64,000 nt of DNA, taken from Chloroflexia bacterium SDU3-3. Its GTDB lineage: Bacteria; Chloroflexota; Chloroflexia; Chloroflexales; Roseiflexaceae. Both the position numbers and the translations under genes were made by a program. Below are positions 2-58,381 of the stretch, piece after piece. Location of the stretch: the NCBI GenBank assembly GCA_009268125.1, contig WBOU01000001.1, positions 372,001 to 436,000 on the forward strand, given 5' to 3'. The notes under the pieces were generated by a model, which searched no databases, had not been told where the DNA came from, and saw nothing but the letters and a program-made list of their open reading frames with translations. Each line of letters begins with the position of its first letter. Within the stretch, counting starts at the first letter, position 1.

Positions 2-136
2 GACGCCGCCACCGAGTGGTGGATCGACCAGCACGGCTACGACGGCGCGGTCTTCGATCGTGGGGCCTACCCGCTGCAGCGAGGCCGCGTGGCGGTGGCC
101 TTCCGGCGCAGCCAGGTGGCCGAGGTGCGCGCATAA
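2..136 (+). CDS. C-terminal fragment of an unidentified protein
   Basis: The last 44 codons of a gene that begins before the window, ending in TAA. The visible text includes WWIDQHGYDGAVFD and ends VAFRRSQVAEVRA. A 'GYDGAVF...VAF..SQV' pattern is reminiscent of the C-terminus of phage/toxin-type ADP-ribosyltransferase folds, where 'GYDGV' is followed by 'vvfdpsqik'. That is only an analogy from a few residues. A hairpin terminator follows immediately, so the end of the gene is secure; the function is not. Confidence 0.6.
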   Translation, partial: DAATEWWIDQHGYDGAVFDRGAYPLQRGRVAVAFRRSQVAEVRA

Positions 137-172
137 AAAAGCGCGCCGCATGGGCTTCCCCATGCGGTGCGC
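135..172. terminator. Bidirectional terminator between convergent genes
   Basis: The arms ccgcatggg (146-154) and cccatgcgg (159-167) form a perfect stem around a four-base loop, extended outward by GC-rich pairs. A run of A at 136-140 becomes a U-tract on the minus strand, so it mainly serves the leftward nitroreductase gene, but it lies right at the stop of the rightward partial gene too. Confidence 0.8.
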
Positions 173-192
173 CTGCAGCCATGCCACAGCGG

Positions 193-798
193 CTAGCCGA
201 TGATCTTGGCCGGCTCGCCCCACTTGCCCTCGTACACAAAGGCCGAGATCGGCTTGCGCACGCGCGGGCCCAGCTCGCGCTCGCGCAGCACATCCACCAG
301 CGTGTCGGCGTCGCCCATCGAGCCGACGGCGATCACCACCATGGGCTTGTAGCCCTCGGGGATGCCGAACACCTCGCGGGCCTTGTCGGCGCTGAAGCCG
401 CCCATCTGGTGCGTCCACAGGCCCAGCGCGCTGGCCTGCACGCTCAGGTGGGCCACAGCCTGGCCCAGATCATAGATCGCCGCGCCGTTCTCGGCACCGT
501 TGTAGCTGCTGGTCAGGCGGGCCACCGCGAAGATCAGCAGCGGCGCGTTCTTGGCCCAGCTCACGTTGCCCTCGGCCAGGGTGCTGACCGCGCCCGCGAA
601 GGCCTCGGCATCCTCGCGCGGCACCACGATGAACTCCCAGGGCTGCTCGTTCATGGCCGAGGGCGCCCAGCGCGCCGCCTCAAGCAGGCTTTTTACCATC
701 TCGGCGGGGATCGGCTCGGGCGAGAAGGCGCGGGGGCTCCAGCGCGAGCGCAGCAGCGGGTGGATCTCGTGATCGGTGGTGGCAGACTTATCGAGCAT
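193..798 (-). CDS. Nitroreductase family protein
   Basis: A 201-residue FMN-dependent NAD(P)H oxidoreductase of the nitroreductase superfamily, a normal length. The N-terminal FMN-binding signature is visible (RSRWSPRAFSPEPIP, then LLEAARWAPSAMNEQPWEF). The middle has the family's 'DLGQAVAHLSVQASALGLWTH' type helix (DLGQAVAHL...ALGLWT), and the C-terminal third has GIPEGYKPMVVIAVG. The physiological substrate cannot be read from sequence; quinones, nitroaromatics or a dehydrogenation substrate are all possible. The gene stands alone with a recognisable promoter and a long structured leader upstream (see 893-948), suggesting regulated, possibly redox- or electrophile-responsive expression. Confidence 0.9.
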   Translation of the reverse strand: MLDKSATTDHEIHPLLRSRWSPRAFSPEPIPAEMVKSLLEAARWAPSAMNEQPWEFIVVPREDAEAFAGAVSTLAEGNVSWAKNAPLLIFAVARLTSSYNGAENGAAIYDLGQAVAHLSVQASALGLWTHQMGGFSADKAREVFGIPEGYKPMVVIAVGSMGDADTLVDVLRERELGPRVRKPISAFVYEGKWGEPAKIIG

Positions 799-892
799 GA
801 TCGTCCTCTATCTTCCTGGCTTGGTTCAAGGCGCATCCACAAGGCACACAAAAGCCTGCGGCATCAGCTGCGGCAGGCCATTCTGCACCCGG

Positions 893-948
893 CACGCGAT
901 TCGGAATCGCGTGAGGCCTATAATAGCACAAGTAAGTAACTTACGCAA
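893..948 (-). promoter_or_regulatory. Promoter with internal palindromic operator and leader hairpin
   Basis: On the minus strand there is TTGCGT (948-943), a 17-bp spacer and TATTAT (925-920). The spacer contains GTAAGTTACTTAC (932-944), a perfect 13-bp palindrome, so a bound dimer would block polymerase. Just downstream a perfect 21-bp palindrome (893-913, arms of ten, cacgcgattc) would fold in the 5' leader; a second imperfect hairpin with gcctgc/gcaggc arms lies at 854-878. The operator form resembles sites of MarR/HxlR-type redox regulators, which often control nitroreductases, but the regulator itself is not in the window. Confidence 0.7.
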
Positions 949-959
949 GTATAGCACAT

Positions 960-1588
960 CAGTTTCAGCACTGGGGCAGACATCCGCTTCGGCCCCACCC
1001 TAACCGCTAATTTCTACGCACGCGCCACCCATGCGGATCTGGCCCGGGCCCCTGTGGGCGTAGCAGCACCAGGCGTTCTACCTAGTGCGCTCAACGGCAG
1101 GGCCTATGTGTTCTCGGCAGGCTGAGGATTCTTCCCCACAAAGACGCGAAGGCTCGAAGGTTGCTCTTCCTTTTTCGTTCGAGTCTCCGTGCGTTCATGC
1201 CTCTTGTTCGCTTTATTCCTTGGGGTCTTAGAGTCTTGGTGGTGAAAGAAGCGGTGTGCTGTCGAGCAGGCATAGACCCTACCCCAGCAGATGCCTGCAT
1301 AGGCGGCGTCGTGGAGACTAGCCCTCACATGATGTCAGATTCTTGAGCATGTCTGCGTCGGGCCAACCGTCGGCAATGCTTGGAGCGCTGCTCGGCCAGA
1401 CCAACCCGTTGTGGCCTCTCAATCTCACATGCCGTGCATGGCTTGGCATGCCGGATAATGCGCTTTGCCGCTTCCCATTGACCTACCCAAAAAGATGACA
1501 CCTGCTGAGGGCGATGACCTCACATGGTGTCACTTTTTCGAGGTGTTTCCCATCAGCGATGGCGGTGGTGGTTGTGGTGTGGGTGGAT
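960..1588. other. Gene-free region with degenerate dispersed repeat
   Basis: I find no credible coding region. Around 1200-1250 the text 'ccttggggtcttagagtcttggtggtgaaa' (read in pieces) is a degenerate copy of the dispersed family seen also near 29215, 34010, 41000, 42830 and 58197. The piece near 1490 (aaaaagatgacacctgctga) resembles one near 21231, pointing to a further shared repeat. Short overlapping open frames here lack ribosome sites and codon bias. Confidence 0.5.
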
Positions 1589-1755
1589 GCCCTGCGCGGG
1601 CGGCGCCGAGGGGCTCGCCCCTCGGAACCCCACCAGGGGGCGCCGCCCCCTTCGAACCCCCAATTTGAAGCATTCCCATGCCGAATGCTGGCGGCCGGTG
1701 TTCGTGCATATGGCCAGTTCGTACGAGTACCACCTTCGCCGCATGGGTAAGGATT
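1589..1755 (+). repeat. Dispersed repeat, copy A (second copy at 40805)
   Basis: About 170 bp shared with 40805-40985. Common blocks include gccctgcgcgggcgg, tggtgttcgtgcatatggcc (approximately) and accttcgccgcatggg in the same order. The first third is a stack of hairpins such as gaggggctcgcccctc. No open frame is conserved between copies, so this is an untranslated repeat family; its mobility is unknown. Confidence 0.7.
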
Positions 1756-2124
1756 GGCTCAGCCCCTAGTTGCATGGCTTCTGTCCCCTCGGTGTCTGGG
1801 TGGTAGATTCGCTCCCTTAGGGTCTTGGGGGTAGATTGGTGCCCTTCTGGGCGAAGACAGCCACTTTACAGCGCCGCCGCAATCTGCTATAACAGCCCTA
1901 CATCCCAGCTCCATCGGCGCACCTTAATAGCTGCATACCGATTATTTTCGCACACAGGCCACATGTCCCATTGTGATGCGGCAAACTGTACGTTCCGCGC
2001 GCCCATAGAGCGCGTGGCTCACCCCAAATATGCCGCGCTTGGCTCTGTGACGCCGGATAACACTGTTTTCAATGACTGACGTTAGGAAAAATCGGCCAAT
2101 TTTGGCCATGCCGCGCAAACTGTC

Positions 2125-2153
2125 TTGCCAAGGGCGTCCCAATGCGCTAAAAT
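2125..2153 (+). promoter_or_regulatory. CRISPR leader promoter
   Basis: TTGCCA (2125-2130), 17-bp spacer, TAAAAT (2148-2153). The predicted transcription start lies around 2160, directly before the first CRISPR repeat at 2163. This fits the orientation given by the repeat's 3' end (ATTGAAAC). The leader proper would be the AT-richer stretch from about 1860 to 2160; nothing else coding is visible there. Confidence 0.7.
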
Positions 2154-2162
2154 AGGGGCGCC

Positions 2163-3378
2163 CTCGGAATCACCTAATCCTCGTGAGGGGATTGAAACAA
2201 ATCAGTGCCCTTCCTGATCCACTTCTGGGTGAGCTCGGAATCACCTAATCCTCGTGAGGGGATTGAAACCAATGTTCTCACTTGAGATGAGCAAAGAAGA
2301 CCCTCGGAATCACCTAATCCTCGTGAGGGGATTGAAACGAATAGCTGTGCCGACGCTTCGGTCAAGGTTTTCACTCGGAATCACCTAATCCTCGTGAGGG
2401 GATTGAAACCGGCAGCGACGAAAGGATAGTAAACATAACAGTTCTCCTGCCTCGGAATCACCTAATCCTCGTGAGGGGATTGAAACTTCGTAGTCGTCCC
2501 TTCCCCCGCCGTAGTAGCGGCGCTCGGAATCACCTAATCCTCGTGAGGGGATTGAAACGGCCCCCGCTGCATAGCCGTTGCCGATCTCCGTTATGGCGAC
2601 CTCGGAATCACCTAATCCTCGTGAGGGGATTGAAACGGACGAGGTTGCGCGCCTACTTGGGAAACTTTAGGAGGCTCGGAATCACCTAATCCTCGTGAGG
2701 GGATTGAAACAACAATCTAAATCACTGCTTCTAGATCAAGCTGGTGCTCTCGGAATCACCTAATCCTCGTGAGGGGATTGAAACGGTCGAGAAGCGCTCC
2801 GACCACCGCCCCAACCTGTCCTCGGAATCACCTAATCCTCGTGAGGGGATTGAAACTTCGTAGATAATCTAGTAGATGGTATAATCGCCATTGCCTCGGA
2901 ATCATCTAATCCTCGTGAGGGGATTGAAACAACCAACAGATCCACGGGTATGGGCAAATAAGGCCGCGCACTCGGAATCACCTAATCCTCGTGAGGGGAT
3001 TGAAACTTGCTGAACTCCTTGCAGACCGGACTGGCGTGCAGGCTCGGAATCACCTAATCCTCGTGAGGGGATTGAAACGGCCATGCGGTGCCAGCCGCGT
3101 GACCCGGCGAAGGCCATGCCTCGGAATCACCTAATCCTCGTGAGGGGATTGAAACAGACAGTCAAGGCGGTGCTGGTTCTCACGAATCTAGCTCGGAATC
3201 ACCTAATCCTCGTGAGGAGATTGAAACAGCTCGGCCTGGTTGACCATCGGCAACGCGATCTTAACGCTCGGAATCACCTAATCCTCGTGAGGGGATTGAA
3301 ACTAAGGCATACTACAGTGAGTCACGCGGATGGCTACGCGACCTCGGAATCACCTAATCCTCGTGAGGGGATTGAAAC
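2163..3378 (+). CRISPR. CRISPR array, 17 repeats and 16 spacers
   Basis: A 36-bp repeat begins CTCGGAATCACC and ends GGGGATTGAAAC. It starts at 2163, 2234, 2303, 2374, 2451, 2523, 2601, 2675, 2749, 2821, 2895, 2971, 3043, 3120, 3192, 3267 and 3343. Spacers are 35, 33, 35, 41, 36, 42, 38, 38, 36, 38, 40, 36, 41, 36, 39 and 40 bp. Two repeats differ by one base: the 11th (c to t) and the 15th (g to a), both in the distal half. The ATTGAAAC end gives the usual 8-nt crRNA 5' tag of many type I and type III systems, and variable spacer length also fits those. The repeat can fold AATCC...GGATT. No cas gene is in the window, so the subtype cannot be assigned. Confidence 0.97.
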
Positions 3379-3396
3379 ACCGAGTTCGGCGCATCG

Positions 3397-3551
3397 CATC
3401 GTCATCATCGGTGTGGGTACGCGATGGCCGCGATGCGGGCGGACACCAGACCCGCCCCTACGGCGTGGCGGCGCATTGCCCACATCGTCATCATCGGTGT
3501 GGGTACGCGATGGCCGCGATGCGGGCGGACACAAGACCCGCCCCTGCGGCG
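3397..3551. repeat. Tandem 86-bp duplication next to the CRISPR trailer
   Basis: Two nearly identical copies begin at 3397 and 3483 (period 86). Each has catcgtcatcatcggtgtgg, then a block ending gacccgcccct, which matches the terminal inverted repeat of the MITE-like elements at 20955 and 42620. Only 18 bp separate the last CRISPR repeat from the first copy, so the distal end of the array appears truncated by this repeat. The rest up to 3629 holds no gene. Confidence 0.8.
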
Positions 3552-3629
3552 CATCACGCACATCGGCGCGAGATGGGGACGATGCGCGCTTAAAGCCGCA
3601 CCTGCTGCGCCGGGGCGAACGCGGGGCGC

Positions 3630-3660
3630 AAAAAGGGGGGGCGGGGAAACCCCCCGCCCC
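3630..3660 (-). terminator. Rho-independent terminator of the secreted protein gene
   Basis: On the minus strand a 9-bp stem GGGGCGGGG/CCCCGCCCC with a GGTTT loop is followed by Cs and TTTTT. It sits about 30 bp after the stop codon of the gene at 3689-4264. Confidence 0.8.
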
Positions 3661-3688
3661 GCCAGGGCAGCAGGCCACAGCTCGACGG

Positions 3689-4264
3689 CTAGCGCGAGCG
3701 CGTGGGTAGGTAGGCGCTGGATGACGGGGCCTCGCTCGGCGCAGGGGTGCTCGCCGTGACCGTGACGGTGGAGGAAGTGGCCCCGCCACCGGCCCAGTTG
3801 CAGAAGTAGCCCTGCCCAGGCCGGTACGCGCAGATCTCGCCCGTGGCCGAGACGGTGAACTTCACCTGCCCGGCCCGCACCGCCGTCAGCGTCCACGAGA
3901 CCGCGCCGAAGTTGACCGAGATCGGGCCAGGCTGCGCCGGGGTCAGCAGCGGGTCGGACTGCGACTGCACCGTCCCGGTGTCGACATCGATCACATACAG
4001 CTGGTATTTTGGCAGGCCCAGGTTCGTGGTGGCGGTGACGATCAGCGTGCTGCCCACCGCCACCGTCGGGGCCGAGGATACGACCGAGACGCTCACCAGC
4101 GGCGGCGATACGGTGGGTGTGGGCGTGGTGGTGGGCGTGGGCGTGGCGGTCAGCAGCAGGCCCTGGCGCGAGGCAGCGCCAGGGTCAGCCGCCTGGGCGT
4201 AGGACGTGGAGAGCGCGAGCAGCAGCACCGCAAGCGCAGAGATACCGATCCGATGCAGTCTCAT
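3689..4264 (-). CDS. Secreted protein of unknown function
   Basis: A 191-residue exported protein starting MRLHRIGIS. The ATG at 4264 is preceded by gaggagga at good spacing, better than the upstream in-frame ATG at 4300. Residues 1-25 are a signal peptide (hydrophobic ISALAVLLLALS, then a YAQAA cleavage site). A Thr/Pro linker (TATPTPTTTPTPTVSPP) follows, then a roughly 110-residue beta-rich domain with VSVSVVSSAPTVAVGSTLIV, which looks like an Ig/fibronectin-type sandwich. Two cysteines flank the end (EICAYRPGQGYFCNW), likely a disulfide. A Ser/Pro-rich tail ends the protein. No sorting signal or anchor is visible. I do not recognise the family. Confidence 0.8.
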   Translation of the reverse strand: MRLHRIGISALAVLLLALSTSYAQAADPGAASRQGLLLTATPTPTTTPTPTVSPPLVSVSVVSSAPTVAVGSTLIVTATTNLGLPKYQLYVIDVDTGTVQSQSDPLLTPAQPGPISVNFGAVSWTLTAVRAGQVKFTVSATGEICAYRPGQGYFCNWAGGGATSSTVTVTASTPAPSEAPSSSAYLPTRSR

Positions 4265-4300
4265 CCTATCCTCCTCTGCTAAAACATAGGTATTCCTCAT

Positions 4301-4818
4301 TTAGACAGCGCCTATGATAGCAGGGTTAGGGCCGTATGTATAGATGTTTGGCGAGATAAAATGACAGTCATCGTCTATTAAGATGGTTGAAAGTGGATAT
4401 ATCGTGTGTTATTGCTTATTTTAGGACATACCTGCTACATAGCGTGCATAGCGTAGCGAAAGCGGCAGAGGCGGCACTAGGGATAATGTCGCCTCTGCCG
4501 CTTTCTGATGCGCCAGGCTCGCGATCACATCGCCGACCGCCAGCGTCAAAAGGCAGGATGCCACGGTTATGATCGCGCCTCGGAGCCTATGGCCTGCCCC
4601 GCTGGGATCACAGACGGCTAGGTGGTAGGTCGCGAGGCGAGATGTATCTTTTTGCGCGCCAGACTCGTATAGAAAAGCGATCGTGCCGTGATCGTCACGA
4701 TCGCTCTTTTTGCTGCGGTATCTTTCACAGAACGATAACCAGCAGGGGCGAAAAGACAGTCGCCTATTGCGGTGAGGTGGCGCCATACCTCTGTCGCAAT
4801 CCTAACCTTGGAGCACCC
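4301..4818. other. Gene-free region with two strong hairpins
   Basis: No coding region is supported. A perfect 15-bp stem (arms at 4459-4473 and 4490-4504, aaagcggcagaggcg) is flanked by A and T runs. A second hairpin (arms agcgatcgtg at 4676-4685 and cacgatcgct at 4696-4705) is followed by ctttttg and looks like a terminator. No gene on the plus strand lies upstream of it, so either it is bidirectional insulation or an unrecognised short transcript ends there. Confidence 0.5.
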
Positions 4819-5388
4819 ATGATCTGCCAGAAATGCCACGCCATCCTGCCGCTCGACGCGCTATTCTGCCACACCTGCGGCAGCGCAGTGCGCCCCGCCG
4901 CCATCGGCCCCACCCAGCGCCTGCCAGATCCGCCCGCCGCCACCGGCCCCACCCAGCGCCTGCCTAGCCCGCCCAGCGCCACGCCGCTGCGCGACCGCCT
5001 GCTGCCCACGCCACCGCCCGGCCAAAGCAGCATCCGCCAGGGCATCTGCCCACGCTGCCACGCCGACACGATCTATACCGACGGAGCATGGCATAACCGC
5101 CAGCCTCAGCAGATCTGGATCGCAGCAGAGACTCTAGGCAAAATCACGCACTTTATTTGCCGCTCGTGTGGGTATATGGAATCGTACATACTCGACGATG
5201 ATGCGAGGGCCGCGATAGAGCGCTACTGGCTGCGGCTTGACCCCAGCTTGCTCACCATCGCGCAGATCGAAGACCAGGTGCGCGAGCTTGTGCGTTCGGG
5301 CCTAGTCGGCACGGCGGTGAGCTATGTGCAGCGATACCTGGGGATGAGCGCCGAACGCGCTGAGGAGTATGTGCGCTCGTTTCAGTAG
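4819..5388 (+). CDS. Double zinc-ribbon protein
   Basis: 189 residues from the ATG at 4819 (ttggagc upstream); in-frame sequence before it shows no ribosome site. The first ribbon is at residues 3-19 (CQKC...CHTC), typical of 'zinc-ribbon' tails. A Pro-rich linker with a repeated GPTQRLP motif follows. A second four-cysteine cluster (CPRC near residue 77 and CRSC near 116) comes next. The C-terminal 50 residues are helical (IEDQVRELVRSGLV...AEEYVRSF), resembling short-C-terminal or UBA-like three-helix segments. No catalytic motif is seen; a binding or adaptor role is likely. Convergent with the Rid gene. Confidence 0.8.
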   Translation: MICQKCHAILPLDALFCHTCGSAVRPAAIGPTQRLPDPPAATGPTQRLPSPPSATPLRDRLLPTPPPGQSSIRQGICPRCHADTIYTDGAWHNRQPQQIWIAAETLGKITHFICRSCGYMESYILDDDARAAIERYWLRLDPSLLTIAQIEDQVRELVRSGLVGTAVSYVQRYLGMSAERAEEYVRSFQ

Positions 5389-20739: not shown

Positions 20740-21270
20740 CGGAGCTCTCCTCAAATAAACCATACTGCGTGGCGCAAGCGGTGGTACAAGCGATGTGGTA
20801 TCCGCCGTTAATAGAACGCTAGTGTACCGCAGGGCAATTACCTATGCTTACCTTACAGCGCTTGGCACTTGGCGCTCCCGCCTGGTCAGCTGGCGATGAT
20901 CCTGCATTGCCGACATCACCCGCAATCCGATGCACGCACTGCCGCACCATGGATGTAGGGGCGGGTCTGGTGCCCGCCCCATTGCAACCCACCGCAGGCA
21001 TCGAACGCCAACCGATGAGCACGGTACGTGGCGATGCTGATCGGCTTCGCGTTCATCGGCGTCATCGAACGCCTCGGCGATGGATACAATGAAACACGTA
21101 GAGGCGGGCACGAGACCCGCCCCTACGTCAACGATCGCATCGCACCCATGCCCACCTGCTGCCGTGGCACCCACCAGGCTGCCCCGGCACGCGGTATCGC
21201 GCCATCTGCTGCATCGGAATGGCCCGCCCGAAAAAGTAGCACCTGTTGAGGGCATCAACCCCAACCGCCC
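20740..21270. other. Gene-free region containing the MITE-like element
   Basis: No coding region is supported. The core is the 172-bp element at 20955-21126. Beyond it, the stretch near 21231 (gaaaaagtagcacctgttga) resembles sequence near 1490. Upstream of the binding-protein gene the minus strand is promoter-like, but I could not place a convincing box pair. Confidence 0.5.
20955..21126. mobile_element. MITE-like element, copy 1
   Basis: 172 bp with terminal inverted repeats of 24 bp (20955-20978 and 21103-21126; one mismatch) beginning gtaggggcgggtc. It shares its interior with the copy at 42620-42792 (gcaggcatcgaacgccaacc and gcgttcatcggcgtcatcga). It has no coding capacity, so any movement would need a transposase from elsewhere. 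Each terminus can also fold on itself (gggcggg...cccgccc). Confidence 0.75.
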
Positions 21271-42619: not shown

Positions 42620-42792
42620 GTAGGGGCGGGTCTGGTGCCCGCCCCATCGCAGGCCGCCGCAGGCATCGAACGCCAACCGATGAGAACAGCGCGTGGCGAT
42701 GCAGATCTGCTTCGCGTTCATCGGCGTCATCGAATGCCCCTGCGATGGATACGATGAAACACGGCGTGGGCGGGCACCAGACCCGCCCCTAC
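42620..42792. mobile_element. MITE-like element, copy 2
   Basis: 173 bp with perfect 24-bp terminal inverted repeats (42620-42643 and 42769-42792) starting gtaggggcgggtctggtg. The interior matches copy 1 at 20955 (gcaggcatcgaacgccaacc, gcttcgcgttcatcggcgtc). Non-coding. The surrounding stretch 42416-42930 has no gene; near 42484 a fragment of the copy A/B repeat (gggtggatgccctgc) is visible. Confidence 0.8.
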
Positions 42793-56855: not shown

Positions 56856-56917
56856 CGCCACAACCACGCACATTCCGCATGAGAGCGTACCCAGCGCAGG
56901 CGGCGAGGAGACACGCG

Positions 56918-57511
56918 ATGCCAGCCATCGACCACGACAGGCGGGAGATCCGCTACACCATCACCTACTATGGCCCTTGCGCAGGAGGAAAATCATCATC
57001 CATGCAGTATGTCCGTCGCCACCTGGGCAACGCATACGCCGAAGATATCTACGCTATCGCCACTGAAACAGAGCACACGATCTTTCTGCATTGCCAAGCG
57101 CCACACATCCCACCAGCTACAGCCTACACACAATCGTTCACTCTCACCGCAACGCCGGGGGCCGTGCTCTACCGCCACAACCGCACCCGCACCCTCGAAC
57201 AGGCCGACGGCGTGGTGTTTGTGGCCGACTCGCAGCGGCTCTGGTATAGGATGATGGACAACGTGAAGCACATGCGAGAGCTAGAGCAAGCTCTTCAGGG
57301 GAAGGGCCGATCCATCCGCACTATCCCCTTCATTCTCCAATATAACAAGCGCGATCTCCCAAACATTTTCTCTATTGACCGCATGAACCACTACCTCAAC
57401 CCGCTGCACCTGCCCGTCTTCGAGACCGACCTCAAGCAGCGCAGCAGCGACATTATGAATGCGTTCGATGCGATAACGCGTATGGTCGTGGCGCAGCAGC
57501 GCAAAGGGTGA
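56918..57511 (+). CDS. MglA-like small GTPase, copy 1
   Basis: 197 residues from MPAIDHDRREIRYTI; ggaggagac lies 9-15 bp upstream of the ATG at 56918. P-loop YYGPCAGGKSSS matches the MglA YYGPGLGGKT type. The switch region reads LTATPGAVLY in place of 'tvPGQ', ADGVVFVADSQ is the following strand, and the base-recognition motif is QYNKRDLPN (NKxD intact). This bacterial Ras-like group controls polarity and gliding together with an MglB-type GAP, none of which is in the window. Four base pairs separate it from its paralogue. Confidence 0.9.
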   Translation: MPAIDHDRREIRYTITYYGPCAGGKSSSMQYVRRHLGNAYAEDIYAIATETEHTIFLHCQAPHIPPATAYTQSFTLTATPGAVLYRHNRTRTLEQADGVVFVADSQRLWYRMMDNVKHMRELEQALQGKGRSIRTIPFILQYNKRDLPNIFSIDRMNHYLNPLHLPVFETDLKQRSSDIMNAFDAITRMVVAQQRKG

Positions 57512-57514
57512 TAT

Positions 57515-58120
57515 ATGGCCACTATCGACACCGAAAACAAGATCATTCACCACAAGATCGCCTACTATGGCATTGGAATGGCGGGGAAAACATCATGTTT
57601 TGAGCATATTCATGCGACACTTGGCCCGGATCATGCCCAAGATCTCTGGTCCATCGGGGAGCGGGTTCTATTCTTTCAGTGCCAAATACCTGATATGACA
57701 CCCTTCCAAGGCTGCACGCGCCACTTTCACCTCTATACCGCACCTGGCTCTTTACTCTACCCCCAAACGCGTATTGATACGCTCAAAGATGCGGATGGGG
57801 TTATCTTTGTAGCCTCTTCTGAATGGGAGAGCAGCGGCTTCCACATGCGCCACAACATAGAGCTTATGCATGAGCTAGAAGGTGCGCTCCGCCAGCAGGG
57901 CCGATCCATCCGCACTATCCCATTCATTTTGCAATACCACAAGCGCGATCTCACTAACATTTTTTCTATTGACCGCATGAACCACTACCTCAACCCGCTG
58001 CGCCTGCCCGTCTTCGAGACCGACCTCAAGCAGCGTAGCGGCGGCATTATGGACGCGTTCGATGCGATAACGCGTATGGTCGTGGCGCAGCATGAGAAAA
58101 CCTTTGGGGCTAATCGATAG
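57515..58120 (+). CDS. MglA-like small GTPase, copy 2
   Basis: 201 residues, aaagggtga upstream of the ATG at 57515. P-loop YYGIGMAGKTSC, LYTAPGSLLY, ADGVIFVASSE and QYHKRDLTN. The Asn of NKxD is replaced by His, so nucleotide specificity or binding may differ from copy 1. The C-terminal third is nearly identical to copy 1 in DNA (for example tctattgaccgcatgaacca and onwards), while the N-terminal half has diverged strongly. This points to duplication with later gene conversion of the 3' part. Confidence 0.9.
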   Translation: MATIDTENKIIHHKIAYYGIGMAGKTSCFEHIHATLGPDHAQDLWSIGERVLFFQCQIPDMTPFQGCTRHFHLYTAPGSLLYPQTRIDTLKDADGVIFVASSEWESSGFHMRHNIELMHELEGALRQQGRSIRTIPFILQYHKRDLTNIFSIDRMNHYLNPLRLPVFETDLKQRSGGIMDAFDAITRMVVAQHEKTFGANR

Positions 58121-58196
58121 GCGAAACCGCACGATCAGAGCGACCTCAACCCGGTCCAGGTGCCAGGCCACAAGACCAACGTCATGCACCGAGAAT

Positions 58197-58290
58197 TCTT
58201 TACCGCCAAGGCTCCAAGGGAACAAAAGGCAATCGAAGGGGGCATGCGTGCGATGCGATCATTGACGTAGGGGCGGGTCTCGTGCCCGCC
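58197..58290 (-). repeat. Dispersed repeats: inverted family copy plus solo MITE terminus
   Basis: First, ttctttaccgccaaggctcc aagggaac is a degenerate inverted copy of the cttggtgtcttggtgg family. Then gtaggggcgggtctcgtgcc (58267 onward to 58290) is a solitary terminus of the MITE-like element. The end of this block abuts the broken third GTPase copy. Confidence 0.7.
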
Positions 58291-58300
58291 TATACCCAGG

Positions 58301-58381
58301 CGCAGCGGCGGCATTATGAACGCGTTCGATATGGTCACGCGTATAATTGGAGAGCATGTGGGAGAACCGCCAACATTCTAG
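58301..58381 (+). pseudogene. Remnant of a third MglA-like GTPase gene
   Basis: In frame it encodes RSGGIMNAFDMVTRIIGEHV and then GEPPTF before TAG. This corresponds to RSGGIMDAFDAITRMVVAQH near the end of copy 2. Everything upstream is missing and replaced by the dispersed repeats. It has no start codon with a ribosome site, so it is a fossil. The VanZ gene follows 15 bp later and may be read from what was the third gene's transcript. Confidence 0.8.

What the first reader, a model, noticed from the sequence alone, without database searches (positions are those of the whole stretch)
56918..58120. Tandem GTPases with near-identical 3' thirds and diverged fronts; copy 2 lacks Asn in NKxD
About 190 bp at the 3' ends are almost identical (57300-57495 and 57900-58090), whereas the P-loop and switch halves differ greatly. 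This mosaic suggests gene conversion keeping a common C-terminal surface with separate nucleotide sites. Copy 1 has QYNKRD, copy 2 QYHKRD. A heterodimer or an active/pseudo-GTPase pair is possible.
Basis: partly seen in the sequence, partly recalled or inferred. Interest (0 to 1): 0.5.

Follow-up and report, generated by a model that had tools for sequence, protein, structure and literature searches.

The report
Paired MglA paralogues missing catalytic glutamine
Two neighbouring genes for MglA-like switch proteins recently copied the same tail but have different, worn-out nucleotide sites, and both, not just one, look unable to split GTP in the usual way.

Summary
Two adjacent MglA-family genes (56918-57511, 57515-58120; 3-nt gap) share 180 of 196 nt at their 3' ends, while the fronts are about 55% identical, with a sharp break at 57302. 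Silent divergence drops from dS 1.59 to 0.20, so the tail was copied recently. A degraded third tail lies downstream. The active/pseudo reading does not hold: both copies lost the catalytic Gln (PGQ to PGA, PGS); copy 1 also lost the Arg finger and Thr78; copy 2 lost Thr54, three switch-I residues and the NKxD Asn. They depart at 26 and 23 of 62 positions near-invariant in 40 homologues, whose own worst is 7. Both keep the P-loop and model confidently as MglA folds. No Roadblock match lies on their contig. Over 134 MglA-like sequences, an MglB homologue adjoins 113 of 125 with Gln and 0 of 9 without. Best reading: a GAP-uncoupled, probably non-hydrolysing MglA pair, so far seen in one genome; decay is the main rival. 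Heterodimerisation is untested. In passing: another Gln-less MglA here follows an RHS-repeat gene, where an immunity gene would sit.

The parts
56918..57511 (+). Copy 1, MglA-family small GTPase paralogue, 197 aa
   Evidence: ORF (the longer listed start at 56879 is not needed by the MglA alignment); PDB sequence match to MglA E 3.9e-28; AF2 pLDDT 88.5; nearest PDB chain MglA-GDP Z 29.9, rmsd 1.4, 191 aligned
57515..58120 (+). Copy 2, MglA-family small GTPase paralogue, 201 aa, starts 3 nt after the copy 1 stop
   Evidence: ORF; 55-57% identical to copy 1; PDB sequence match to MglA E 2.4e-28; AF2 pLDDT 87.0; nearest PDB chains MglA-GDP Z 29.5
57303..57498 (+). Homogenised tract in copy 1 (beta5 with NKRD, alpha4, beta6, alpha5)
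   Evidence: break at 57302; repeat D1; secondary structure
57897..58092 (+). Homogenised tract in copy 2
   Evidence: same spacing of 594 nt
56972..56995 (+). P-loop of copy 1, GPCAGGKS (intact consensus)
57149..57163 (+). G3 of copy 1, ATPGA in place of TVPGQ (Thr78 and Gln82 lost)
57344..57355 (+). G4 of copy 1, NKRD (intact)
57737..57751 (+). G3 of copy 2, TAPGS in place of TVPGQ (Gln lost)
57938..57949 (+). G4 of copy 2, HKRD (Asn to His)
58126..58191 (+). Probable 5' piece of a degraded third tail (36 of 49 and 35 of 49 nt like copies 1 and 2)
   Evidence: 0 of 2000 first-order random sequences reach its score (22 against at most 20)
58192..58299 (+). Stretch between the two pieces of the third tail, with two repeated motifs; read as an insertion
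   Evidence: TTTACCGCCAAGGCTCCAAGG at 58199-58219 (2 more in the window at 3 mismatches); GTAGGGGCGGGTCTNGTGCCCGCC at 58267-58290, 95 matches genome-wide at up to 2 mismatches
58300..58381 (+). 3' piece of the degraded third tail, RSGGIMNAFDMVTRIIGEHVGEPPTF-stop
   Evidence: first 45 nt: 39 of 45 like copy 2, 38 of 45 like copy 1

Best explanation
A tandem pair of orphan (not beside mglB) MglA-family paralogues that have left the GTPase cycle. Shown: both are MglA homologues with an MglA fold model and a P-loop; both lack the Gln that MglB positions for hydrolysis; silent sites show that the 3' third was copied between them recently, while the fronts had long diverged. Inferred: an mglA copy freed from its GAP MglB lost its hydrolytic residues, duplicated, and works (copy 1 binding GTP but hardly hydrolysing it, copy 2 binding nucleotide weakly or not at all) as a static MglA-like binding protein that competes with or modulates the partners of the canonical mglA of contig C16. 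The nearly abutting ORFs suggest co-translation. Which partner is bound is not known.
For: MglA homology and models. Lost residues: 26 and 23 of 62 near-invariant positions, 16 positions changed in both, against 0-7 among the 40 homologues, each scored against the rest. Gln loss goes with absence of MglB: 0 of 9 against 113 of 125 coupled, Fisher 1e-8, or 2e-5 if the nine are counted as five lineages. No Roadblock match on contig C1; canonical MglB-MglA pair on C16. Break and dS contrast. Literature: Q82L of M. xanthus MglA cannot hydrolyse GTP (PMC6876712, passages); N141A gives no detectable MglA and abolishes fruiting by normal MglA in merodiploids, T78A complements poorly (PMC3000849, passages).
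Against: No biochemistry. Only one genome holds the pair among those searched, so constraint cannot be measured between species; within the copied tract dN/dS is about 0.4 and not significantly below 1. Part of the nine Gln-less sequences were fetched by me because they scored low as MglA, and short flanks or contig ends may hide an MglB gene in some of the 12 uncoupled Gln-bearing and 9 Gln-less loci. Q82A and Q82R of M. xanthus MglA gave no detectable protein (PMC3000849, passages), so Gln loss can mean instability rather than a locked state. Other residues could substitute for Gln.
Confidence: 0.5

Rival explanations
1. The pair is a decaying array of redundant mglA duplicates (birth and death): relaxed constraint lets catalytic residues go, copying between tails is incidental, and the third tail is the next stage.
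For: A third degraded tail downstream; many near-invariant residues lost; dN/dS in the tract not significantly below neutral; single-genome distribution.
Against: Both frames are open over about 200 codons, P-loops intact, models confident; front dN 0.53 against a near-saturated dS 1.59 points to past constraint.
Confidence: 0.28
2. One reading: copy 1 an active GTPase and copy 2 a pseudo-GTPase that form a heterodimer through the shared C-terminal third.
For: 3-nt spacing; shared alpha4-beta6-alpha5 third; NKRD kept in copy 1 only.
Against: Copy 1 lacks Gln82, Arg53 and Thr78; MglA is described as a monomer that binds an MglB dimer (PMC4316618, passages); recent copying explains the shared third without selection.
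Confidence: 0.1
3. The pair are orphan decoy or immunity proteins against GTPase-targeting toxins, as another Gln-less MglA of this genome may be.
For: The MglA-like gene on contig C39 starts 25 bp after an RHS-repeat ORF whose tail shares C, H and D columns with two other tails of this genome; those two are also followed by a small gene, one with a clear P-loop.
Against: None of 8 neighbour ORFs of the pair scanned is toxin-like; the pair is no closer to the C39 protein (29% and 27%) than to canonical MglA (about 34-40%); the toxin and immunity labels are inferred from position, and no toxin family was matched.
Confidence: 0.07

Closest known systems
MglA, Group 1 of the prokaryotic MglA family (Myxococcus xanthus, Thermus thermophilus)
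   Same: Fold, length, N-terminal strand, P-loop, GVVFVADSQ and LQYNKRD region; best PDB matches by sequence and by fold.
   Different: TVPGQ motif broken in both; Arg finger lost in copy 1; NKxD Asn lost in copy 2; no mglB nearby.
SofG of M. xanthus (orphan MglA homologue)
   Same: Orphan, MglA-like, its hydrolysis not aided by MglB (PMC4316618, passages).
   Different: SofG keeps the Arg that is important for its GTPase activity, and is 239 aa (same passages). Its sequence was not compared here.
DO-GTPases (paired conflict-system GTPases, PMC7159879, passages)
   Same: Two adjacent paralogous GTPase genes.
   Different: No Glu in the G3 region of either copy; none of 8 neighbour ORFs scanned has a GTPase-associated match; Pfam DO-GTPase2 score of copy 1 is below cut-off and copy 2 has none.
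G046:C284 orphan MglA (L072, same order)
   Same: Best match outside the own genome (42% to copy 1, 43% to copy 2), no MglB homologue found on its 9.5 kb contig, Gln replaced by Cys.
   Different: Single copy; Arg finger and NKRD intact.

Membership tests
MglA family (Group 1) | Sequence and fold of MglA | tested here: met
MglA family (Group 1) | P-loop GxxxxGK[ST] | tested here: met
   GPCAGGKS and GIGMAGKT
MglA family (Group 1) | Intrinsic Arg finger beside the G2 Thr (PMC4316618, section read) | tested here: not met
   copy 1 EHT: Arg lost; copy 2 ERV keeps Arg but loses Thr54
MglA family (Group 1) | G3 motif TVPGQ with catalytic Gln (PMC4316618, section read) | tested here: not met
   ATPGA and TAPGS
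MglA family (Group 1) | G4 [NT]KxD | tested here: inconclusive
   copy 1 NKRD met; copy 2 HKRD not met
MglA family (Group 1) | mglB within four genes (usual, not universal: 390 of 449 family members, PMC4316618, section read) | tested here: not met
   no Robl_LC7 match at E 0.001 on contig C1
MglA family (Group 1) | GTP binding and hydrolysis | not testable with these tools
   needs protein
DO-GTPase | Conserved Glu in the Walker B motif (PMC7159879, passages) | tested here: not met
   no Glu in the G3 stretch of either copy
DO-GTPase | GAP1 gene downstream (PMC7159879, passages) | tested here: inconclusive
   8 neighbour ORFs scanned with Pfam: cupin, BFN, DUF1540, VanZ, CoA-binding, YhbY, metallophosphoesterase and one without match; whether Pfam models GAP1 was not checked

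The most novel reading that the evidence does not exclude
Gln-less, GAP-free MglA-fold proteins recur in this order as decoys: in this genome one would be the immunity protein of an RHS toxin whose tail has a C-H-D pattern (papain-like by my recall of such patterns, not by any match), and the window pair an orphan array of the same kind, kept by tail copying, that shields the true MglA from a GTPase-modifying toxin.
Probability: 0.06. Interest if true: 0.75.

Novelty: new variant of a known kind. Interest (0 to 1): 0.38.

Why it matters
It gives a natural test of what MglA can do without hydrolysis or a GAP, and suggests that loss of the catalytic Gln goes with loss of MglB coupling in orphan MglA paralogues, which can be tested over more genomes at once. 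In the held library a search for MglA with pseudoGTPase listed one paper, on GTP loading of Ras, and MglA with Herpetosiphon two, on gliding and on predation; neither search shows such proteins described, though subscription journals are mostly not held.

Tried and rejected
Named families: Pfam and NCBIfam give only sub-threshold matches for copy 1 and none for copy 2. Orthologues of the pair: a genome-contig scan with the two copies matched 65 stretches, none a relative (the own genome may be left out there); a wider scan found 549 relatives, of which the best 80 were kept, at 32-39% identity. Operon partners: none evident among 8 neighbour ORFs. Promoter and terminator scans: one each, as in shuffles. 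Trees: the full-length tree of 60 rows joins the two (99/87), but the quick tree of the N-terminal part of 52 rows gives no starred set that holds them, so their sisterhood rests partly on the copied tail; shared departures in the fronts support it but could be convergent. Herpetosiphon-like Gln-less genes L080 and L082 are not beside RHS genes, which counts against a general immunity reading; the neighbours of L081, L083 and L084 were not inspected. The small genes after the C13 and C1-end RHS tails gave no significant match to the MglA profile, to PDB or above a Pfam cut-off. The RHS tails matched no toxin family in Pfam or NCBIfam and no PDB chain. Type IV pilus context: two T2SSE ATPases above cut-off, type not resolved. 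A joint model of both copies was given up because the homologues aligned to the first half only.

Full report
Setting. The window is positions 372001-436000 of contig C1 of a 6.76 Mb, 51-contig genome. Its family f1 also holds contigs whose lengths and hits equal those of Roseiflexus and Kouleothrix records, so it is probably a Roseiflexaceae member (inference). No genome of the same genus is among the 60 relatives.

Observation. Two ORFs, 56918-57511 and 57515-58120, lie 3 nt apart on the plus strand. 57300-57495 and 57894-58089 agree at 180 of 196 positions, the 42 nt before at 26 of 42; outside the array the best match of the tract in the window is 81 of 196. A max-chi2 scan places a sharp break at 57302, far beyond 2000 permutations. 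Before it dS is about 1.59 and dN 0.53; after it dS 0.20 and dN 0.085. Since silent sites are alike too, the tail was copied recently. Conversion, unequal crossing-over and partial re-duplication cannot be told apart. Because the His of copy 2 lies inside the copied tract, it most simply arose by one base change after the copying (inference).

Third tail. Directly after copy 2, 58126-58191 and 58300-58381 resemble the same 3' region (0 of 2000 random sequences reach the weaker piece, though 22 against 20 is a narrow margin), parted by 108 nt that hold two repeated motifs. It is either a dead third gene or the displaced older tail of copy 2 (inference).

Identity. By sequence, MglA chains are the only strong PDB matches of either copy (E 3.9e-28 and 2.4e-28; the next for copy 1 is Rab7a at 0.057). 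Models of both are confident (pLDDT 88.5 and 87.0) and lie closest to GDP-bound MglA (Z 29.9 and 29.5), well above the Rab and Ras rows (about 19). The alignments given to the modelling hold MglA homologues, so some likeness is built in. The copied tract is beta5-alpha4-beta6-alpha5.

Catalytic residues. Against 40 homologues chosen from 80 loci, 62 columns are at least 90% conserved; copy 1 departs at 26, copy 2 at 23, 16 columns are changed in both, and no homologue departs at more than 7 of 57-59 when scored against the rest. In copy 1: R53H, T78A, Q82A. In copy 2: T54V, Q82S, Asn of NKxD to His, three switch-I residues missing. In M. xanthus MglA, Q82L cannot hydrolyse GTP (PMC6876712, passages); Q82A, Q82R and N141A strains show no detectable protein, and T78A complements poorly (PMC3000849, passages). 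So copy 2's His is not the only lesion, and copy 1 is not a normal GTPase either.

Context. Neighbours are cupin, BFN, DUF1540, VanZ, CoA-binding, YhbY and metallophosphoesterase genes. The genome has five Roadblock matches, none on contig C1; contig C16 bears a canonical MglB-MglA pair with TVPGQ. Among 134 distinct MglA-like sequences from the loci in hand (L003-L033, L042-L091, L096-L184; rows with over 70 gaps dropped), 113 of 125 with Gln have an MglB homologue within 4.5 kb in the held DNA, and 0 of 9 without Gln do (Fisher 1e-8, or 2e-5 for five lineages). The nine are the pair, C39, G046:C284 and five genes of family f3, which also holds a Herpetosiphonaceae record. Part of this set was fetched because it scored low, many loci have only 1.5 kb flanks, and relatedness is not corrected for.

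Distribution. Nothing scoring near the pair occurs in the other 157 genomes of the class (best other 145 bits, against 208 between the copies) or in 399 others drawn from the phylum, which overlap with these (threshold 1e-30).

Mechanism. Shown: homology, fold model, residue losses, recent copying, no mglB. Inferred: weak or absent hydrolysis, static binding, co-translation from the 3-nt gap. The main rival is decay, since dN/dS in the copied tract is not significantly below 1.

Side finding. The C39 MglA-like gene (Gln to Ser; GC3 0.24, against 0.75 for the C16 mglA) begins 25 bp after an ORF with RHS repeats and an RHS-associated core. Three tails of this family in the genome share C, H and D columns. 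The C13 one also follows an RHS core; the C1-end one is cut by the contig end and its core match is below cut-off. The gene behind the C13 tail has a P-loop; that behind the C1-end tail matches nothing. A related tail in G006, read in two frames, is also followed by a P-loop ORF start. Only the C39 gene is clearly MglA. No other of 400 phylum genomes matched the tail profile at 0.001, and one other of 158 class genomes matched the C39 tail. I have seen only passages of the polymorphic-toxin survey PMC3482391 (12 of 28 places shown), where GTPases appear as toxin targets.

Noticed in passing
L071 (G000:C39) 3-4457 and 4483-5040: RHS-repeat ORF followed after 25 bp by an AT-rich Gln-less MglA-like gene, the usual place of an immunity gene.
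   Followed up: partly
L190 8077-8571 and 8685-10013; L189 8297-8866 and 8901-9875; L186 591-1347: Related tails with a C-H-D pattern, each followed by a small gene; those in L190 and L186 carry a GAPxVGKT P-loop, that in L189 does not; homology to MglA not significant where tested (L190, L189).
   Followed up: partly
window 58267-58290, 20955-21126, 42620-42792 and others: Dispersed repeat GTAGGGGCGGGTCTNGTGCCCGCC, 95 matches genome-wide at up to 2 mismatches, 0 for the reversed control, in places as inverted pairs about 150 bp apart.
   Followed up: partly
L080 3049-3690, L081, L084; L082, L083: Other Gln-less MglA-like orphans in family f3 genomes (QGVA, EGVA, AGAA and HGAI in place of PGQV); L080 is followed by an overlapping DUF7677 gene.
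   Followed up: partly
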